Source: Candidatus Nitrososphaera gargensis Ga9.2 (GTDB lineage Archaea > Thermoproteota > Nitrososphaeria > Nitrososphaerales > Nitrososphaeraceae). Taken from it: 64,000 bases of DNA. Positions 14,461-22,569 of this stretch are shown in pieces; position 1 is the stretch's first letter; every line of letters starts with the position of its first letter. The notes below the pieces were generated by a model. The model saw only the letters and a list, made by a program, of their open reading frames with translations, was not told where the DNA came from and made no database searches. Where the stretch lies: NCBI RefSeq assembly GCF_000303155.1, contig NC_018719.1:1116001-1180000 (forward strand). Direction: 5' to 3'. A program made the translations under genes and the position numbers.

Positions 14461-15582
14461 CTATTTCTTTTTCTTCTTCAGGTGGTGCAAGCGCGACAGG
14501 TGGAAAAGCGCCCTTTCGTACACTTCAATGCTTGCCACGTATTCGTCGATGTTTACCCGCTCGTCGGCTGTGTGCGACGCGTGTGGGTCGCCCGGCCCGT
14601 AGGTGATAACGGGTATCTTGAAGCTGTGCCCAAGCACATTCATGTCGCCAGTGCCGGTCTTACGAAGGAGCGTCGGCCTCTTGTTGCGCACGTCAAGCAC
14701 TGCAAGCAGGAGCGCCCTGACAAGGGGCGACGCGTGATCGGCCTCGAAAGGCTCGGTCTTGTCCTCTATCCTGTATGTCGCCTTGACCCCTTTTTCCAAA
14801 GCGACCTTGGTAATGACAGTGTCGACTATGCGGAGCACGTTGTCGCAGGTCGTTATCGTGGGCACCCTGATGTCTATGGTTATCTTGCACTTTTGTGGCG
14901 TGACATTGTGGCTTGACCCGCCGGTTATCTCGGTCAGGCTGCAGCTGATCGACTTTGCCTTGTTCTCTGCCGTGCCGACGCGCTCTATCTCTGACTTGAT
15001 GGCCTTCCAAAAATCGTACATTTCTTCAATCGAGTTCTTGGCAAGCCATGGCGCGCTTGCGTGTGCGCTGTCACCGACGTCGCACGTCAGGCGCACAGCC
15101 AGTCTGCCCTTGTATGCGACGGTGATGTTTTCGACGCCAGAAGGCTCGCCAAACACCGCATAGTCGACCCCAAGCTTGCTCTTGACCAGATGCTTTACCC
15201 CCGTCGCGTTGCCCTCTTCGTCCACAACTCCTGCAAATATCACGGTGCCGCTCTGCTTTGGAAACTCTGAAGCGGCAAGCAGCATGGCTATCAGGGGCGC
15301 CTTTGCGTCGGAAGCGCCGCGGCCGTAAATGTGGCCGTCCTCTATCCTTACCGGCACCTGCCCAGGCACAGTGTCCATGTGGCCGCAGAGCAAAATGCGG
15401 GGCTCGCCAGTCCCCTTTGTGGCAATGATGTTGCCGACGTTGTCGATGTTGACCTGCTCAAAGCCAAGCTCGTTCACGCATTTGTCCTTTATCATGTTGG
15501 CAAGGGCAGCCTCTGATCTGGAAGGGGTGTAAAGCTCCAACGCCTTCTTCAATAATTCTACCGCGTAACTTGGCGAAACCAA
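14461..15582 (-). CDS. lysK: [LysW]-L-lysine/[LysW]-ornithine hydrolase (LysK)
   Basis: The 373-residue M20-family metallopeptidase releases lysine (or ornithine) from the LysW carrier, the last step of the LysW pathway. Metal-site motifs are in order: LLCGHMDTVPG, GRGASDAKAP, VVDEEGNATG (catalytic Glu pair), FGEPSGVENI and a late histidine in HASHTADERV. The lid/dimerisation domain holds DSAHASAPW. The start is TTG, 6 bp after the lysX stop, with no alternative that keeps the conserved N-terminus. It is the fourth gene of the homocitrate synthase-lysW-lysX-lysK operon. Thaumarchaea seem to use one set of these enzymes for both lysine and arginine, so dual specificity is likely. Confidence 0.93.
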   Translation of the reverse strand: MVSPSYAVELLKKALELYTPSRSEAALANMIKDKCVNELGFEQVNIDNVGNIIATKGTGEPRILLCGHMDTVPGQVPVRIEDGHIYGRGASDAKAPLIAMLLAASEFPKQSGTVIFAGVVDEEGNATGVKHLVKSKLGVDYAVFGEPSGVENITVAYKGRLAVRLTCDVGDSAHASAPWLAKNSIEEMYDFWKAIKSEIERVGTAENKAKSISCSLTEITGGSSHNVTPQKCKITIDIRVPTITTCDNVLRIVDTVITKVALEKGVKATYRIEDKTEPFEADHASPLVRALLLAVLDVRNKRPTLLRKTGTGDMNVLGHSFKIPVITYGPGDPHASHTADERVNIDEYVASIEVYERALFHLSRLHHLKKKKK

Positions 15583-15588
15583 TTTTGC

Positions 15589-16485
15589 TTACTTTCCTTG
15601 CCCTAGCGCGTAATCCACCATCAAACCGGGGATATCAACCCCTGTAACCCGGACGGTATTTTTAAATTCAGTGGTATTATTGACCTCGTGCACCATGAGG
15701 CCGTCGCTCTTGCTCTCCATCAGGTCGACCCCGACTATCTGGCCGCCCAGAGCCCGCGTGGCCTTAAGGCAAATGTCTTCAAGCTCCTTTGTAACAGGGC
15801 ATGCCTCGGCGTGGCCGCCAAGAGCCATGTTCGTCTTCCATTCGCCTTCGCCGGAATAGCGGTATATAGCAGCCACTACCCTGTCGCCAACTACAATCGC
15901 TCTGATGTCCCGGGGCGGACGCTCGACAAACTCTTCAAAGTAATAGACCTGATATATCGGAAACATGTGCTCCCTATCTTCTATCACTGCCTTGGCCGCT
16001 TCCTTGTCGCGCAAGAGCGCGATGAGCCTACCCCAGCTGCCAACCGTGGGCTTGACTACCGCAGGATAGCCTAACTCTTCGAGCGCCGCCAGAGCCGACT
16101 CTTCTGAAAACGCTGCTACTGCCTTTGGTGTTCGCACGCCCGCCTTTTCAAGCTCCATGTGGGCATACATCTTGTTGCCACACAGTATGGCAGCATTCAA
16201 CGGGTTGATCACACATGCGCCAAGGCCTTCAAGCGCCGCGGTAGAGTGGACGTTCTTGAAGTAGCTGACGCTCCTCTGGAGCACTACCTGTCCGTTGTAT
16301 TTTGACCTGCCGCTATTCAGGTTTACGACAAGGTTCTTGCAGTCAACGTTTTCGACGCTGACACCTTTCTTCTTTGCGGCTTCGTAGAGGGCCTTCTCCT
16401 CCCACCTGATGCTGTCATAGAGGATGGTAAGGGAGTTGCCGGAAAAATTTGATTGAGACGACTGGCCAGCCTTTTCCTGCCTCAC
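15589..16485 (-). CDS. lysX: LysW-alpha-aminoadipate ligase (LysX), ATP-grasp
   Basis: The 298-residue RimK-type ATP-grasp enzyme couples alpha-aminoadipate (or glutamate) to the C-terminal residue of LysW. Visible motifs: a pre-ATP-grasp domain (LTILYDSIRWEEKALYEAA), PAVVKPTVGSWGRLIALLRD for nucleotide binding, DIRAIVVGDRVVAAIYRYS, and the substrate-recognition segment VHEVNNTTEFKNT. The N-T-T-E-F form is the one associated with LysX. GTG 16485 overlaps the lysW stop by four bases (GTGA). The first 17 residues are an unusual polar extension ahead of the normal family start, with no in-frame internal start codon. Translational coupling with lysW is likely. Confidence 0.93.
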   Translation of the reverse strand: MRQEKAGQSSQSNFSGNSLTILYDSIRWEEKALYEAAKKKGVSVENVDCKNLVVNLNSGRSKYNGQVVLQRSVSYFKNVHSTAALEGLGACVINPLNAAILCGNKMYAHMELEKAGVRTPKAVAAFSEESALAALEELGYPAVVKPTVGSWGRLIALLRDKEAAKAVIEDREHMFPIYQVYYFEEFVERPPRDIRAIVVGDRVVAAIYRYSGEGEWKTNMALGGHAEACPVTKELEDICLKATRALGGQIVGVDLMESKSDGLMVHEVNNTTEFKNTVRVTGVDIPGLMVDYALGQGK

Positions 16486-16652
16486 TGACCCCAGTCCTCG
16501 CCGACAACCTGCGCCGGTTTTATTTCAAACCCTTCGCCCGACTTGACAAGCTCGTAGCTTGCGCCACAGTCAGGGCAGGTTACGATCTCGCCCTCTATCG
16601 AGTCGGAAGGTATCTTGATCTCTGCGTCACATTCTGGACACTTGACTACCAC
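16482..16652 (-). CDS. lysW: LysW amino-group carrier protein, C-terminus EDWGQ
   Basis: A 56-residue carrier with the two zinc-binding pairs KCPECDAEIKIP and VTCPDCGASYEL, an acidic body and the C-terminal EDWG motif. LysW protects the amino group of aminoadipate as an isopeptide on the gamma-carboxyl of its last residue, normally Glu (EDWGE). Here the last codon is CAG, so the translated end is EDWGQ. The start is GTG 16652, 10 bp after the homocitrate synthase stop. The stop overlaps the lysX start. The altered acceptor residue is the important oddity. Confidence 0.92.
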   Translation of the reverse strand: MVVKCPECDAEIKIPSDSIEGEIVTCPDCGASYELVKSGEGFEIKPAQVVGEDWGQ

Positions 16653-16661
16653 GCCATTATT

Positions 16662-17882
16662 CTACTCCTTTGATGGGCTTAGTTTTACAGCAGCGTCATT
16701 AAGTATCTTTCTCTCCAGCCTGTCGTCCAAATATAGTTCCAGTATGTCGCCCATGCGCAGTTCCTTCAGGCCGCGTGCCAGAGCTTCTGCCTCATGCTTG
16801 CTAGTCTCAAGCCCAAGCAGCGACAGCAGGTACGCTGCCCCGTTCTTGCCTGCAAGCTCACCAAACACTATCTTGCGCCTGTTGCCGACCGTCTTTGGCT
16901 CTATTATTTCATAGGCGGCGGGGTTGCGCAGTATGGCCGCCAAGTGCGTACCGGCCTTGTGCTTGTACGCACTGTCGCCGACGATCGGCTTTGACTCTGG
17001 TATTGGCAGGCTGATATAGTCAGAGATGGTCTTTGAAAGGTCCTTTAGCATGTGGAGCCGGAGGTCGTTGTTTGACTTGTAGATAAGCGTGAGCGCGACA
17101 GCCGTTTCGGCTAGGCTCGGGATTCCAGTGCGCTCGCCAAACCCATCTATGGTCGTATGGATCTGGTCAGCTCCAGCTTCGCACCCTGCAAGCGCGTTTG
17201 CCAGCGCCAGCCCCACATCGTTATGGCAATGGACATCAAGCGAAGTCTTGCTCTTGTCAATGTTGTTGTATACCATTTTTACCAAATTGTACATGCCCCG
17301 CGGCCGCATGATGCCGACGGTATCCGGTATGCTTATCCGTTCGATCCCGCGCCTGTTCATCTCCTTGCACATCTCGATAAGGAACGTCGGATCTGTCCTG
17401 CTGGCGTCTTCCATGGTGAACCTCGCCTTTAGGCCATGCGCCTTGATGTAGTCGGCGACTTCTAACGCTCTTGCCTTGGCCTCTTCGCGCGTGATCTTTA
17501 GCTTTGCCGAAATGTGGATGTCTGAAATGCCCATGTAGGTCGCGACCCATGTGGCGCCGCAGTCGATCGCGACGTCGACGTCGGACTTGATCGCCCTTGT
17601 GTGCGCGACAATGTCGGCGCGCAGCCCCTGCTTGATTATTGTCTTGGTCGCTTCAGCGTGGTCCGGCGAAACCACTGGGCTTATCTCTATCTGGTCGACT
17701 CCAAACGAGTCGAGCATCCACGCGATCTGGATCCTCTGCTTTATCGTGAACGCTACCCCGGGGTGCTGCTCGCCCTCTCTCAGGGTGCTATCGAGGATCC
17801 TTATCTTCTTCTGCTTGCCATTTTCACCCATCCAGTTGTACTGATGCGCATAATAGTTTGGATCGTCTGATTTTAGCGACAT
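16662..17882 (-). CDS. Homocitrate synthase (LysW-type lysine pathway)
   Basis: The 406-residue member of the DRE-TIM (alpha-isopropylmalate/homocitrate synthase) family condenses 2-oxoglutarate with acetyl-CoA. Motifs: ILDSTLREGEQHPGVAFT, the catalytic helix with RFTMEDASRTDP, the metal ligands LDVHCHNDVG and the flexible region GERTGIPSLAE. The C-terminus (YKHKAGTHLAAILRNPAAYE) belongs to the communication domain. It heads the lysine operon. A TATA box (TTTATATCAT, 17911-17920) lies about 30 bp upstream of the ATG, flanked by TTGCGATA and TTGTCGCAA arms that could be a regulator site. Isopropylmalate or citramalate synthase activity is less likely given lysW next door. Confidence 0.9.
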   Translation of the reverse strand: MSLKSDDPNYYAHQYNWMGENGKQKKIRILDSTLREGEQHPGVAFTIKQRIQIAWMLDSFGVDQIEISPVVSPDHAEATKTIIKQGLRADIVAHTRAIKSDVDVAIDCGATWVATYMGISDIHISAKLKITREEAKARALEVADYIKAHGLKARFTMEDASRTDPTFLIEMCKEMNRRGIERISIPDTVGIMRPRGMYNLVKMVYNNIDKSKTSLDVHCHNDVGLALANALAGCEAGADQIHTTIDGFGERTGIPSLAETAVALTLIYKSNNDLRLHMLKDLSKTISDYISLPIPESKPIVGDSAYKHKAGTHLAAILRNPAAYEIIEPKTVGNRRKIVFGELAGKNGAAYLLSLLGLETSKHEAEALARGLKELRMGDILELYLDDRLERKILNDAAVKLSPSKE

Positions 17883-18031: not shown

Positions 18032-19519
18032 TCAAGATTGTTGCAGATACTTCCTGACGATCCTGTTCAGGTTATCGAACGAACCTTGGACCATCTTGGT
18101 GCGCTTTTGGATCCCGACCTTGTAGTTTGACACTCCTTGCGACAGCGACTCTATCATCTCTTGCTGCTCCTGAAGGTTGGGCGACCCTGTCGATTTCCGC
18201 ACCTGCAGAGACTTTTCCGGTGTCATCTCTTTGATTATCTTCATCATCTCGTCCGGCTTGATGCTTACGCCCGCCTTTTGTGTCTTCAGGACAGAAGTAA
18301 CGTCGGACAACTGTAGTTTTGCAAGTGGCAAGTTGTCCATGCTTGCGGCCCTGTTGACAAGAGCACCCACTATCTTGTGAGCTGCCCGGAATGGCATCTT
18401 GTTTTTCATCACCAGCTGCTCTGCAATGTCTAGCGCGATTGCATAGCTGGTGCTTGCAGCCCGGCACATCTTTTCCTTGTTCACCTTGAGCGACCTGGCT
18501 GCACCGTCAATTACCCTGATCGTGTCAAGCGTTATTGCAGACGCGCCAAGCAGCGGCGGCTTGACATCCTGCAAGTCACGGCTGTAGCCGGACGGCAGCG
18601 CCTTGACGATGCCGAGCATCGACACTAGGTTGCTTGCAACGATGGCGGCCTTGGCCCTTGTCAGCTCGAGAGGATCAGGGTTCTTCTTTTGCGGCATCGC
18701 GCTTGAAGTCGAGCTGTACCGATCGGCAAGCTCGATGTAGCCAAATTCGGACGTCGACCAGATGATAAAGTCCTCGGCAATCCTGCCAAGCGTGCTGGTC
18801 AATATCGCAAGCGTCGCGGCATATTCCAAGAATGCGTCGCGCGAGCTTGTTGCATCTATGGAATTCCTGACTATGCTGTCAAAGCCTAGCAGGACGGCGG
18901 TCCTTTTCCTGTCGATACTTATACTCGATCCCCCTATGGCGCACGCGCCAAGCGGCGACTGGTTCACCCGCTGGTATACGAGATATAGCCGCTCCATATC
19001 GCGCATGAGCGCGTAGGCGTACGACAGCAAAAAGTGGGAGAACGTCCCTATCTGCGCCTGCTGCAAATGGGTATACATCGGCATCGCAGCCTGCTTGGTC
19101 TCTTTGGCCTTCTCTACCAAGCCCTCTATCAGGCTCGCAAGGGCGGTGCAGATTTCGTTAATGTCGTCGCGTATCTTCATCCTGATATCAAGCACAACTT
19201 GGTCGTTCCTTGACCGGGCGGTGTGCATCTTGCCCCCTGCGTCCATGCCTGCCCTCTTTATCACAAAAGCCTCAAGGGCTTCATGTATGTCCTCATATCC
19301 TTCAGTCTCAATCCTGTCCGGATTCTTTTTTGCATCTTCCAGTGCCGACAGTATCTTTTTCAGCTCGCCAGAAGTGAGGTGCCCCATTTCGTGCAGCATT
19401 ATAGAGTGTGCTTCGCTCCCAAGGATGTCGTAGTACAGTATCGACTGGTCGTGCTGCATCGAAGAGAGGAACCTAAGTACATGGTCGTCCAGTTTATCCT
19501 TGGGTCGGGACCGGTACAT
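18032..19519 (-). CDS. argH: Argininosuccinate lyase
   Basis: A fumarase/aspartase-superfamily enzyme of about 495 residues that splits argininosuccinate into arginine and fumarate. The signature SSTSSAMPQKKNPDPLE is intact, as are MHTARSRNDQVVLDIR, MPMYTHLQQAQIGTFSHF (catalytic His) and the C-terminal helical domain. ATG 19519 (MYRSRPKDKLDD) is chosen: an AT-rich element (TTAAAATAAAG) lies about 30 bp upstream, and the longer frame to 19570 adds non-family residues. The gene lies upstream of the LysW operon on the same strand with 150 bp between, consistent with shared arginine/lysine biosynthesis. Confidence 0.96.
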   Translation of the reverse strand: MYRSRPKDKLDDHVLRFLSSMQHDQSILYYDILGSEAHSIMLHEMGHLTSGELKKILSALEDAKKNPDRIETEGYEDIHEALEAFVIKRAGMDAGGKMHTARSRNDQVVLDIRMKIRDDINEICTALASLIEGLVEKAKETKQAAMPMYTHLQQAQIGTFSHFLLSYAYALMRDMERLYLVYQRVNQSPLGACAIGGSSISIDRKRTAVLLGFDSIVRNSIDATSSRDAFLEYAATLAILTSTLGRIAEDFIIWSTSEFGYIELADRYSSTSSAMPQKKNPDPLELTRAKAAIVASNLVSMLGIVKALPSGYSRDLQDVKPPLLGASAITLDTIRVIDGAARSLKVNKEKMCRAASTSYAIALDIAEQLVMKNKMPFRAAHKIVGALVNRAASMDNLPLAKLQLSDVTSVLKTQKAGVSIKPDEMMKIIKEMTPEKSLQVRKSTGSPNLQEQQEMIESLSQGVSNYKVGIQKRTKMVQGSFDNLNRIVRKYLQQS

Positions 19520-19646
19520 ATATAGAAGTGTGCACCGTGGGCGCTTTATTTTAAGATTGTACAGCAACAAGCTAGCTCCAGTCTATCTGTTTGTTAACGT
19601 GTACTAGCTTGCCCGCTGTTATACACCATTTAGCAACGGATTTTCG

Positions 19647-19931
19647 ATGGAATCCGTCCTTGCAGAATCAACGCGACTGATAGAATACCCAGCCGACCTA
19701 TCGGGATGCAGCATCATCGGCGTCGGGGACAGGCAGCTGCTGTACTTATGCACGCGCGGAAGCGGCAAGCCTCTGGTTGTGGTGCTCGGGTTCTTCTCTG
19801 GGCAAAAAGAGGATATCATCACCAAGGACCTGATAGAACCCGTGGTCGAGGAGAGCCGGCGCAGGATAGGCGAGATCGTTGCCAGCTCGCTGTTTGATGA
19901 ATACCAGAACGCACAGATCCTCTTTCTTTAA
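19647..19931 (+). CDS. Conserved hypothetical protein (94 aa)
   Basis: A compact alpha/beta protein with CSIIGVGDRQLLYLCTRGSG, LVVVLGFFSGQKEDIITKDL and a C-terminal helix. No motif identifies it. It has balanced codon use and stands alone. The stop lies inside the first bases of a 75-bp inverted repeat. ATG 19647 is the only sensible start. Confidence 0.6.
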   Translation: MESVLAESTRLIEYPADLSGCSIIGVGDRQLLYLCTRGSGKPLVVVLGFFSGQKEDIITKDLIEPVVEESRRRIGEIVASSLFDEYQNAQILFL

Positions 19932-20004
19932 TTCTTTTAAGCAGACTATAAAAGAACTAATTTTAATTTCTATATGCATGCTCCACTGGAAACTGGCACA
20001 TGCA
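19930..20004. repeat. 75-bp inverted repeat, left copy (partner at 22467-22541)
   Basis: The reverse complement matches 22467-22541 at 73 of 75 positions. It contains GCAGACTATAAAAGAACTAA and ends in TGCA. The two copies enclose tRNA-Gln and two divergent genes (2.5 kb). The similarity stops abruptly at both ends. Read toward the right, the partner copy supplies the region upstream of cutA, with a TATA-like TTTTATAGT. Confidence 0.95.
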
Positions 20005-22466: not shown

Positions 22467-22541
22467 TGCATGTGCAAGTTTCCAGTGGAGCATACATATA
22501 GAAATTAAAATTAGTTCTTTTATAGTCTGCTTAAAAGAATT
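22467..22541. repeat. 75-bp inverted repeat, right copy (partner at 19930-20004)
   Basis: Matches the reverse complement of 19930-20004 with two mismatches. It lies between the end of the dehydrogenase-like gene and the start of cutA, so it probably contains the cutA promoter (TTCTTTTATAGTC). Confidence 0.95.
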
Positions 22542-22569
22542 AATTAATTGCACGCCGCAACCATAACTT

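What the first reader, a model, noticed from the sequence alone, without database searches (positions are those of the whole stretch)
16482..16652. LysW carrier ends in EDWGQ instead of EDWGE
The gamma-carboxyl of the last Glu is the point where LysX attaches aminoadipate. The last codon here is CAG. With Gln the acceptor is an amide, so the pathway would need deamidation, a different linkage, a second LysW, or this is a single-base error (G to C). LysX and LysK look complete.
Basis: partly seen in the sequence, partly recalled or inferred. Interest (0 to 1): 0.65.

Follow-up and report, generated by a model that had tools for sequence, protein, structure and literature searches.

The report
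Lysine carrier protein ending in glutamine
The small protein that carries lysine precursors here ends in glutamine instead of the glutamate thought essential for loading; this is real, it recurs in many archaea and bacteria (often as the only carrier), and it suggests the carrier is made in a locked form that an enzyme must first unlock.

Summary
Confirmed: the LysW gene (window 16482-16652, minus strand) ends EDWGQ (CAG at 16487-16485) in an intact lysS-lysW-lysX-lysK operon. It is neither a sequencing error nor rescued by a second carrier. The only other LysW in this single-contig genome, next to argG/argX, also ends EDWGQ. All 18 genus genomes read carry Q. Across ammonia-oxidising archaea each of the two carriers is E or Q, in several combinations. 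EDWGQ also recurs in other Thermoproteota and in about ten bacterial phyla; in 20 of 20 such bacterial genomes it is the only EDWG[EQ] match. Nitrosocosmicus-like genomes have one carrier (Q), both ligases, and one LysY and one LysK. In 200 class genomes no residue other than E or Q was found at GEDWG-X-stop (Asp and His untested). Ligase motifs are intact, and no ligase residue tracks Q versus E. Best reading: the Gln amide is hydrolysed once to Glu and the carrier is then recycled, as Dop matures Pup-Gln, plausibly by the pathway's own isopeptidase (LysK in archaea; an EgtC-like protein sits in bacterial operons). Deamidation itself is inferred. The main rival is linkage through the alpha-carboxyl. 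No paper in the searched library mentions EDWGQ.

The parts
16482..16652 (-). lysW, amino-group carrier protein, 56 aa, GTG start, ends EDWGQ
   Evidence: NF041070 90.7 bits above cut-off, PF21344 51.3 bits
16485..16487 (-). terminal codon CAG (Gln) in place of Glu; its G is also the first base of the lysX GTG start (CAGTGA overlap)
   Evidence: CAGTGA in 49 distinct LysX-linked Gln tails
15589..16485 (-). lysX, ATP-grasp ligase that loads aminoadipate on LysW (GTG start at 16485-16483)
   Evidence: TIGR02144 332 bits, cut-off 275.6; aligned to LysX of 3vpd, 1uc8, 5k2m
16027..16041 (-). GSWGR motif of LysX (residues 149-153), reported to recognise the EDWGE tail
   Evidence: numbering; motif role from PMC10433800; kept in 162 of 164 Gln-partner and 80 of 82 Glu-partner ligases
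14461..15582 (-). lysK, M20 [LysW]-lysine hydrolase; candidate deamidase of LysW-Gln
   Evidence: PF01546 and PRK04443-like; aligned to LysK 5xoy; single copy in this genome at E<=1e-5
16662..17882 (-). homocitrate-synthase-like gene (lysS) heading the lysine operon
   Evidence: TIGR02146/LEU1-type hits below equivalog cut-offs; same order in AOA loci
18032..19570 (-). argH, argininosuccinate lyase, upstream neighbour
   Evidence: TIGR00838 460.7 bits, cut-off 279.5

Best explanation
LysW here is a working carrier encoded in a latent form. The terminal Gln is the amide of the Glu that LysX needs. An amide hydrolase removes the ammonia once, giving LysW-Glu, which LysX then loads on its gamma-carboxyl. 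After LysZ, LysY, LysJ and LysK have acted, LysK regenerates LysW-Glu, so only new carrier molecules need maturing. The most economical maturation enzyme is the one that ends the pathway, because cutting LysW-gamma-Glu-Lys and LysW-gamma-Glu-NH2 are the same reaction with a different leaving group: LysK in archaea, and probably the EgtC-like class II amidotransferase-fold protein in bacterial operons. This is the logic of Pup-Gln and Dop. Shown: Gln is real, conserved, recurrent and often the only carrier; only Glu or Gln was found in the class; the ligase motifs are intact. Inferred: deamidation (about 0.58). LysK, or in bacteria the EgtC-like protein, as the deamidase (about 0.35) is a weaker inference.
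For: Both carriers of this complete genome are Gln-ended, so Gln carriers must serve lysine and arginine synthesis if these run through LysW. Nitrosocosmicus-like single-contig genomes have one carrier (Gln), and one LysY and one LysK; the one read in full has both LysX and ArgX. 20 of 20 bacterial genomes with EDWGQ have no other EDWG[EQ] match. In Nitrosopumilaceae genome G101, Glu-ended ArgW and Gln-ended LysW flank one set of argC/lysY, argB/lysZ and argD/lysJ genes, and LysY and LysK are single in it, so shared enzymes must accept both carriers; this fits one final adduct. In 200 class genomes no residue other than Glu or Gln was found after GEDWG, 18 of 20 residues covered (with 11, 14). 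Glu/Gln switches at least 11 times on a 120-row ligase tree without a covarying ligase residue. Near-identical carriers differ at the last residue. Natrinema ArgW E54A is an arginine auxotroph (PMC10433800), so the acceptor residue matters. Dop deamidates Pup-Gln and cleaves Pup-protein isopeptides (PMC8599861). Bacterial LysW operons carry an EgtC-like protein with an invariant N-terminal Cys.
Against: No deamidation was observed. LysK is present in Glu-only lineages too, and the bacterial EgtC-like gene accompanies both Glu (11 of 11) and Gln operons, so neither is specific to Gln. Deamidation of a primary amide by M20 LysK is unproven. The covariation test has only 6 well-supported contrasts, so a weak ligase adaptation could be missed. 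Whether a DAP lysine pathway exists in these genomes was not searched.
Confidence: 0.58

Rival explanations
1. Different linkage: the ligase activates the C-terminal alpha-carboxyl of Gln and makes an ordinary peptide bond to the amino group of aminoadipate or glutamate, as RimK does on ribosomal protein S6. The side chain is then not the acceptor and Glu and Gln are interchangeable.
For: LysX belongs to the RimK-like ATP-grasp family, whose named relatives are alpha-L-glutamate ligases; no ligase residue separates Gln from Glu partners; switching is frequent.
Against: Characterised LysX/ArgX systems use the gamma-carboxyl (PMC10433800). With an alpha-linkage other residues should be tolerated, but none besides Glu/Gln was found in 200 genomes. 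It would also require the shared LysZ/Y/J/K enzymes to work on that linkage.
Confidence: 0.2
2. Transamidation: LysX or another enzyme exchanges the amide nitrogen of Gln for the amino group of aminoadipate (transglutaminase-like), releasing ammonia at loading, so no Glu form is needed.
For: Chemically possible; would explain acceptance of Gln only in addition to Glu. No direct evidence.
Against: LysX keeps its ATP-grasp ligase motifs; after the first cycle LysK would leave Glu, so the ordinary ligase reaction is needed anyway; no transglutaminase-like gene was seen in the operon.
Confidence: 0.07
3. A Glu-ended carrier elsewhere does the work and Gln-ended LysW is a decoy or regulator.
For: Most Nitrosopumilaceae have one Glu and one Gln carrier.
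Against: In this genome, in g1, g3, g9, g10 and g11, and in Nitrosocosmicus-like genomes no Glu-ended carrier was found; the same in 20 of 20 bacterial genomes.
Confidence: 0.03
4. Recoding or mistranslation: the Gln codon is read as Glu at this site.
For: LysX-linked Gln codons are mostly CAG (55 CAG, 5 CAA); archaea make Gln-tRNA through Glu-tRNA (general knowledge).
Against: ArgX-linked Gln codons are mostly CAA (28 CAA, 7 CAG), and CAG in lysW is explained by overlap with the lysX GTG start.
Confidence: 0.03
5. Single-base sequencing error (GAG read as CAG).
For: One base separates the codons.
Against: The same residue is in all relatives of the genus and in the second paralog.
Confidence: 0.005

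Closest known systems
LysW/ArgW amino-group carrier of the AAA-lysine and LysW-arginine pathways (Thermus thermophilus, Sulfolobus, Thermococcus, Natrinema)
   Same: Zn-ribbon carrier profile, EDWG tail, operon with LysX, LysZ/Y/J and LysK; family models pass cut-off
   Different: The acceptor Glu, conserved in the described proteins and needed in Natrinema (PMC10433800), is encoded as Gln
Pup-Gln / Dop (prokaryotic ubiquitin-like protein and its deamidase-depupylase)
   Same: Small protein whose C-terminal Gln must become Glu before an ATP-dependent ligase can use it; both Gln- and Glu-encoded versions exist; one enzyme deamidates and cleaves the isopeptide (PMC8599861)
   Different: Unrelated fold and enzymes (PafA/Dop are glutamine-synthetase-like; LysX is ATP-grasp, LysK is M20); LysW carries a metabolite, not a protein target; deamidation of LysW is not shown
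RimK-type alpha-L-glutamate ligases (RimK, MptN, CofF)
   Same: Same ATP-grasp family as LysX
   Different: They join to an alpha-carboxyl (general knowledge); characterised LysX joins to the gamma-carboxyl of LysW
EgtC (gamma-glutamyl amidohydrolase of ergothioneine synthesis)
   Same: Closest named family of the class II amidotransferase-fold protein in bacterial LysW operons (48.0 and 45.2 bits)
   Different: Far below the EgtC cut-off of 218.65; sits where LysK would be expected; function untested

Membership tests
LysW/ArgW carrier protein | Sequence profile of the carrier family | tested here: met
   NF041070 90.7 bits (cut-off 75), PF21344 51.3 (cut-off 27); TIGR01206 40.3, below its cut-off of 53.2
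LysW/ArgW carrier protein | Two CxxC zinc-binding pairs | tested here: met
   CPEC and CPDC in the translation
LysW/ArgW carrier protein | C-terminal Glu as acceptor (EDWGE) | tested here: not met
   Encoded EDWGQ. This is why it is filed as a variant; a mature Glu form would restore the feature
LysW/ArgW carrier protein | Adjacent LysX/ArgX ligase with GSWGR and metal-binding motif | tested here: met
LysW/ArgW carrier protein | Carries aminoadipate or glutamate in the cell | not testable with these tools
   Needs mass spectrometry or an in vitro assay
Pup-Gln/Dop-like maturation (works like) | C-terminal residue is Gln or Glu and nothing else among relatives | tested here: met
   0 of 200 genomes with the 18 residues covered by the two patterns; Asp and His not covered
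Pup-Gln/Dop-like maturation (works like) | An enzyme converts Gln to Glu | not testable with these tools
   Only candidates: LysK and the bacterial EgtC-like protein
Pup system itself | Pup and PafA/Dop homologues | tested here: not met
   The carrier is a LysW Zn ribbon, the ligase RimK/ATP-grasp and the hydrolase M20
RimK-type alpha-carboxyl linkage | Bond to the C-terminal alpha-carboxyl | not testable with these tools
   No structure or mass data for a Gln-ended carrier

The most novel reading that the evidence does not exclude
Across archaea and bacteria the LysW carrier is often made as an amide-locked pro-carrier, and the pathway's own isopeptidase (LysK, or an unrelated EgtC-like enzyme in bacteria) unlocks it: an independent parallel to Pup-Gln/Dop in primary metabolism.
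Probability: 0.35. Interest if true: 0.75.

Novelty: new variant of a known kind. Interest (0 to 1): 0.62.

Why it matters
The terminal Glu of LysW is described as the conserved acceptor that defines the carrier. Its frequent replacement by Gln, in organisms with no other carrier, means that either an unrecognised maturation step or a different linkage exists in lysine and arginine synthesis of ammonia-oxidising archaea and many uncultured bacteria. It can be tested directly with three small recombinant proteins and a mass spectrometer.

Tried and rejected
Sequencing error and rescue by a second carrier: rejected. AOA-specific trait: first suggested, then rejected when EDWGQ LysW appeared in other Thermoproteota families f32, f37, f55 and f58 and in bacteria; the match in G435 (f31) was not a LysW. 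Codon-specific recoding: rejected from codon use. Ligase co-adaptation: groups compared within family f1 gave few separating positions for LysX, one of them an artefact of the overlap with the lysW codon; 953 column tests with independent pairs gave nothing beyond 3.3 of 6. LysK as a universal companion: M20 LysK was seen in only one bacterial Gln locus, which led to the EgtC-like gene. The 'of' option needed a G handle. No structure prediction was run, because the complex of ligase and carrier could not be submitted.

Full report
OBSERVATION. The minus-strand ORF at 16652-16482 encodes a 56-residue LysW that ends EDWGQ; the last codon is CAG (16487-16485), followed by TGA. It passes the archaeal carrier model NF041070 and Pfam PF21344. 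The G of CAG is the first base of the GTG start of lysX (CAGTGA). The operon is lysS-like, lysW, lysX, lysK; LysX and LysK match their families well and align with solved LysX and LysK.

NOT AN ERROR, AND NO BACK-UP CARRIER. Its only other LysW-like match, at 2344041-2344205 between argG and an ArgX-like ligase, ends VGEDWGQ; a third match is insignificant (E = 0.48). In all 18 genomes of the genus every LysW read ends in Gln in both paralogs.

DISTRIBUTION IN THE CLASS. Reading the loci shows which paralog carries Gln. In f2 (mostly) and f3-g22, LysW is Gln and ArgW is Glu. In f1, genera g1, g3, g9, g10 and g11 have Gln in both; g4 has LysW Gln and ArgW Glu; g5 and g6 have LysW Glu and ArgW Gln; g2 and g8 gave only a LysW, with Gln. 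Other families of the order that were read, and f3 genus g32, have Glu in both.

SINGLE GLN CARRIER. In G087, a single-contig genome of genus g2, the order is argG, argX (overlapping argG, no argW between), argC/lysY, argB/lysZ, argD/lysJ, lysS, lysW(Gln), lysX, lysK. Genome searches find one LysW, one LysY and one LysK in G087, G110 and G117. One Gln-ended carrier must therefore serve both ligases in G087. In f2 genome G101 the cluster is argG, argW(Glu), argX, argC/lysY, argB/lysZ, argD/lysJ, lysS, lysW(Gln), lysX, lysK, so a Glu and a Gln carrier share one enzyme set.

BEYOND THE CLASS. In 329 phylum genomes EDWGQ also turned up in families f32, f37, f55 and f58; the loci are real LysW genes, several in complete lys/arg clusters. 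A scan of GTDB genomes for EEDWGQ-stop gave 87 stretches; of 80 read, 67 are LysW-like, from Gammaproteobacteria, Acidobacteria, Melioribacteraceae and other Ignavibacteria, KSB1, Calditrichota, Gemmatimonadetes, Chloroflexi, Dehalococcoidia, Desulfosarcina, Microgenomates-type lineages and others. Twenty of these genomes were searched whole: each has exactly one EDWG[EQ]-stop match, and it is Gln. In 296 genomes of the Melioribacter phylum, 14 had EEDWG[EQ]: 11 Glu and 3 Gln. The Stygiobacter Gln carrier and a relative's Glu carrier are 92.5% identical in the rest of the sequence.

CONSTRAINT ON THE RESIDUE. In 200 class genomes the patterns GGNGARGAYTGGGG-N-WNN-TRR and -SBN- gave no match, so apart from Asp and His (not covered) nothing but Glu or Gln was found in this context. 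Glu/Gln needs at least 11 changes on a tree of 120 ligases. GSWGR, which is reported to read the EDWGE tail (PMC10433800), is kept in 162 of 164 Gln-partner and 80 of 82 Glu-partner ligases. Neither the within-family comparison nor 953 independent-pair tests found a ligase residue that follows Gln; only 6 contrasts were well supported, so power is modest.

MECHANISM. LysX needs a carboxyl. Natrinema ArgW E54A is an arginine auxotroph and MS places the substrate on that residue (PMC10433800). A tail free to be Glu or Gln but nothing else, an unchanged ligase, and shared downstream enzymes point to one mature form, Glu, reached from Gln by amide hydrolysis. The precedent is Pup: where it is encoded with Gln, Dop both deamidates it and cleaves the Pup-protein isopeptide (PMC8599861). 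The equivalent here would be the enzyme that cuts LysW-gamma-Glu-Lys. Since the carrier is recycled as Glu, each molecule needs deamidation once. This step is inferred, not shown.

BACTERIAL OPERONS. They read lysW, (homocitrate-synthase-like), lysX, lysY, GAT2, lysZ, lysJ. GAT2 is a roughly 210-residue class II amidotransferase-fold protein (Pfam GATase_4 above cut-off in one of two tested; EgtC model well below cut-off). In 48 sequences it has an invariant Cys after the start residue and nearly invariant HARS and FNG motifs. It is in 11 of 11 Glu loci and 34 of 71 Gln loci (many stretches are too short), whereas an M20 LysK was seen in one. By position it looks like a replacement of LysK; enzymes of this fold hydrolyse the gamma-amide of Gln (general knowledge), so it could also mature LysW-Gln. 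Ten Gln loci also have an amidase-signature gene upstream.

RIVALS. Alpha-carboxyl linkage is the serious one: LysX is in the RimK family. It predicts tolerance of other residues, which was not seen. Transamidation, decoy carrier, recoding (ArgX-linked Gln codons are mostly CAA) and sequencing error are weak or refuted.

LITERATURE. In the searched open library EDWGE occurs in two papers and EDWGQ in none. The only paper with LysW, glutamine and deamid* was a general review of modification sites found by term match and not read. A metabolic model of Nitrosopumilus maritimus adds the LysW route; the passages read do not mention the tail (PMC6038301). Subscription papers were not searchable, so prior notice elsewhere is possible.

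Noticed in passing
L309-L319 and many of L203-L282, e.g. L310:7154-7798, L255:6721-7356: Bacterial LysW operons carry an EgtC-like class II amidotransferase-fold protein, usually between lysY and lysZ, and almost never an M20 LysK in the stretch read; it may be an unrecognised replacement of LysK.
   Followed up: partly
L255:1605-2966 and nine other Gln loci: An amidase-signature protein (PF01425, 334 bits) lies upstream of lysW in 10 Gln-type loci, mostly Gammaproteobacteria; another possible amide hydrolase.
   Followed up: no
L197:1267-3328 (G087) and whole genomes G087, G110, G117: Nitrosocosmicus-like genomes seem to have lost argW; G087 keeps argX, so LysW probably serves both ligases, as in Sulfolobus.
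   Followed up: partly
L262, L259: Thermoflexus hugenholtzii and a Chloroflexi relative have lysW(Gln)-lysX without the usual lysY/GAT2 neighbours in the stretch; a genome paper notes an incomplete LysW pathway there (PMC8129789).
   Followed up: no
window 19928-20004 and 22467-22543: A 77-nt inverted repeat pair, 97% complementary and 2,462 nt apart; no tRNA found nearby.
   Followed up: no
L192 and L193 (G054): One Nitrosopumilaceae genome (genus g19) has Gln in both carriers, unlike most of its family.
   Followed up: no
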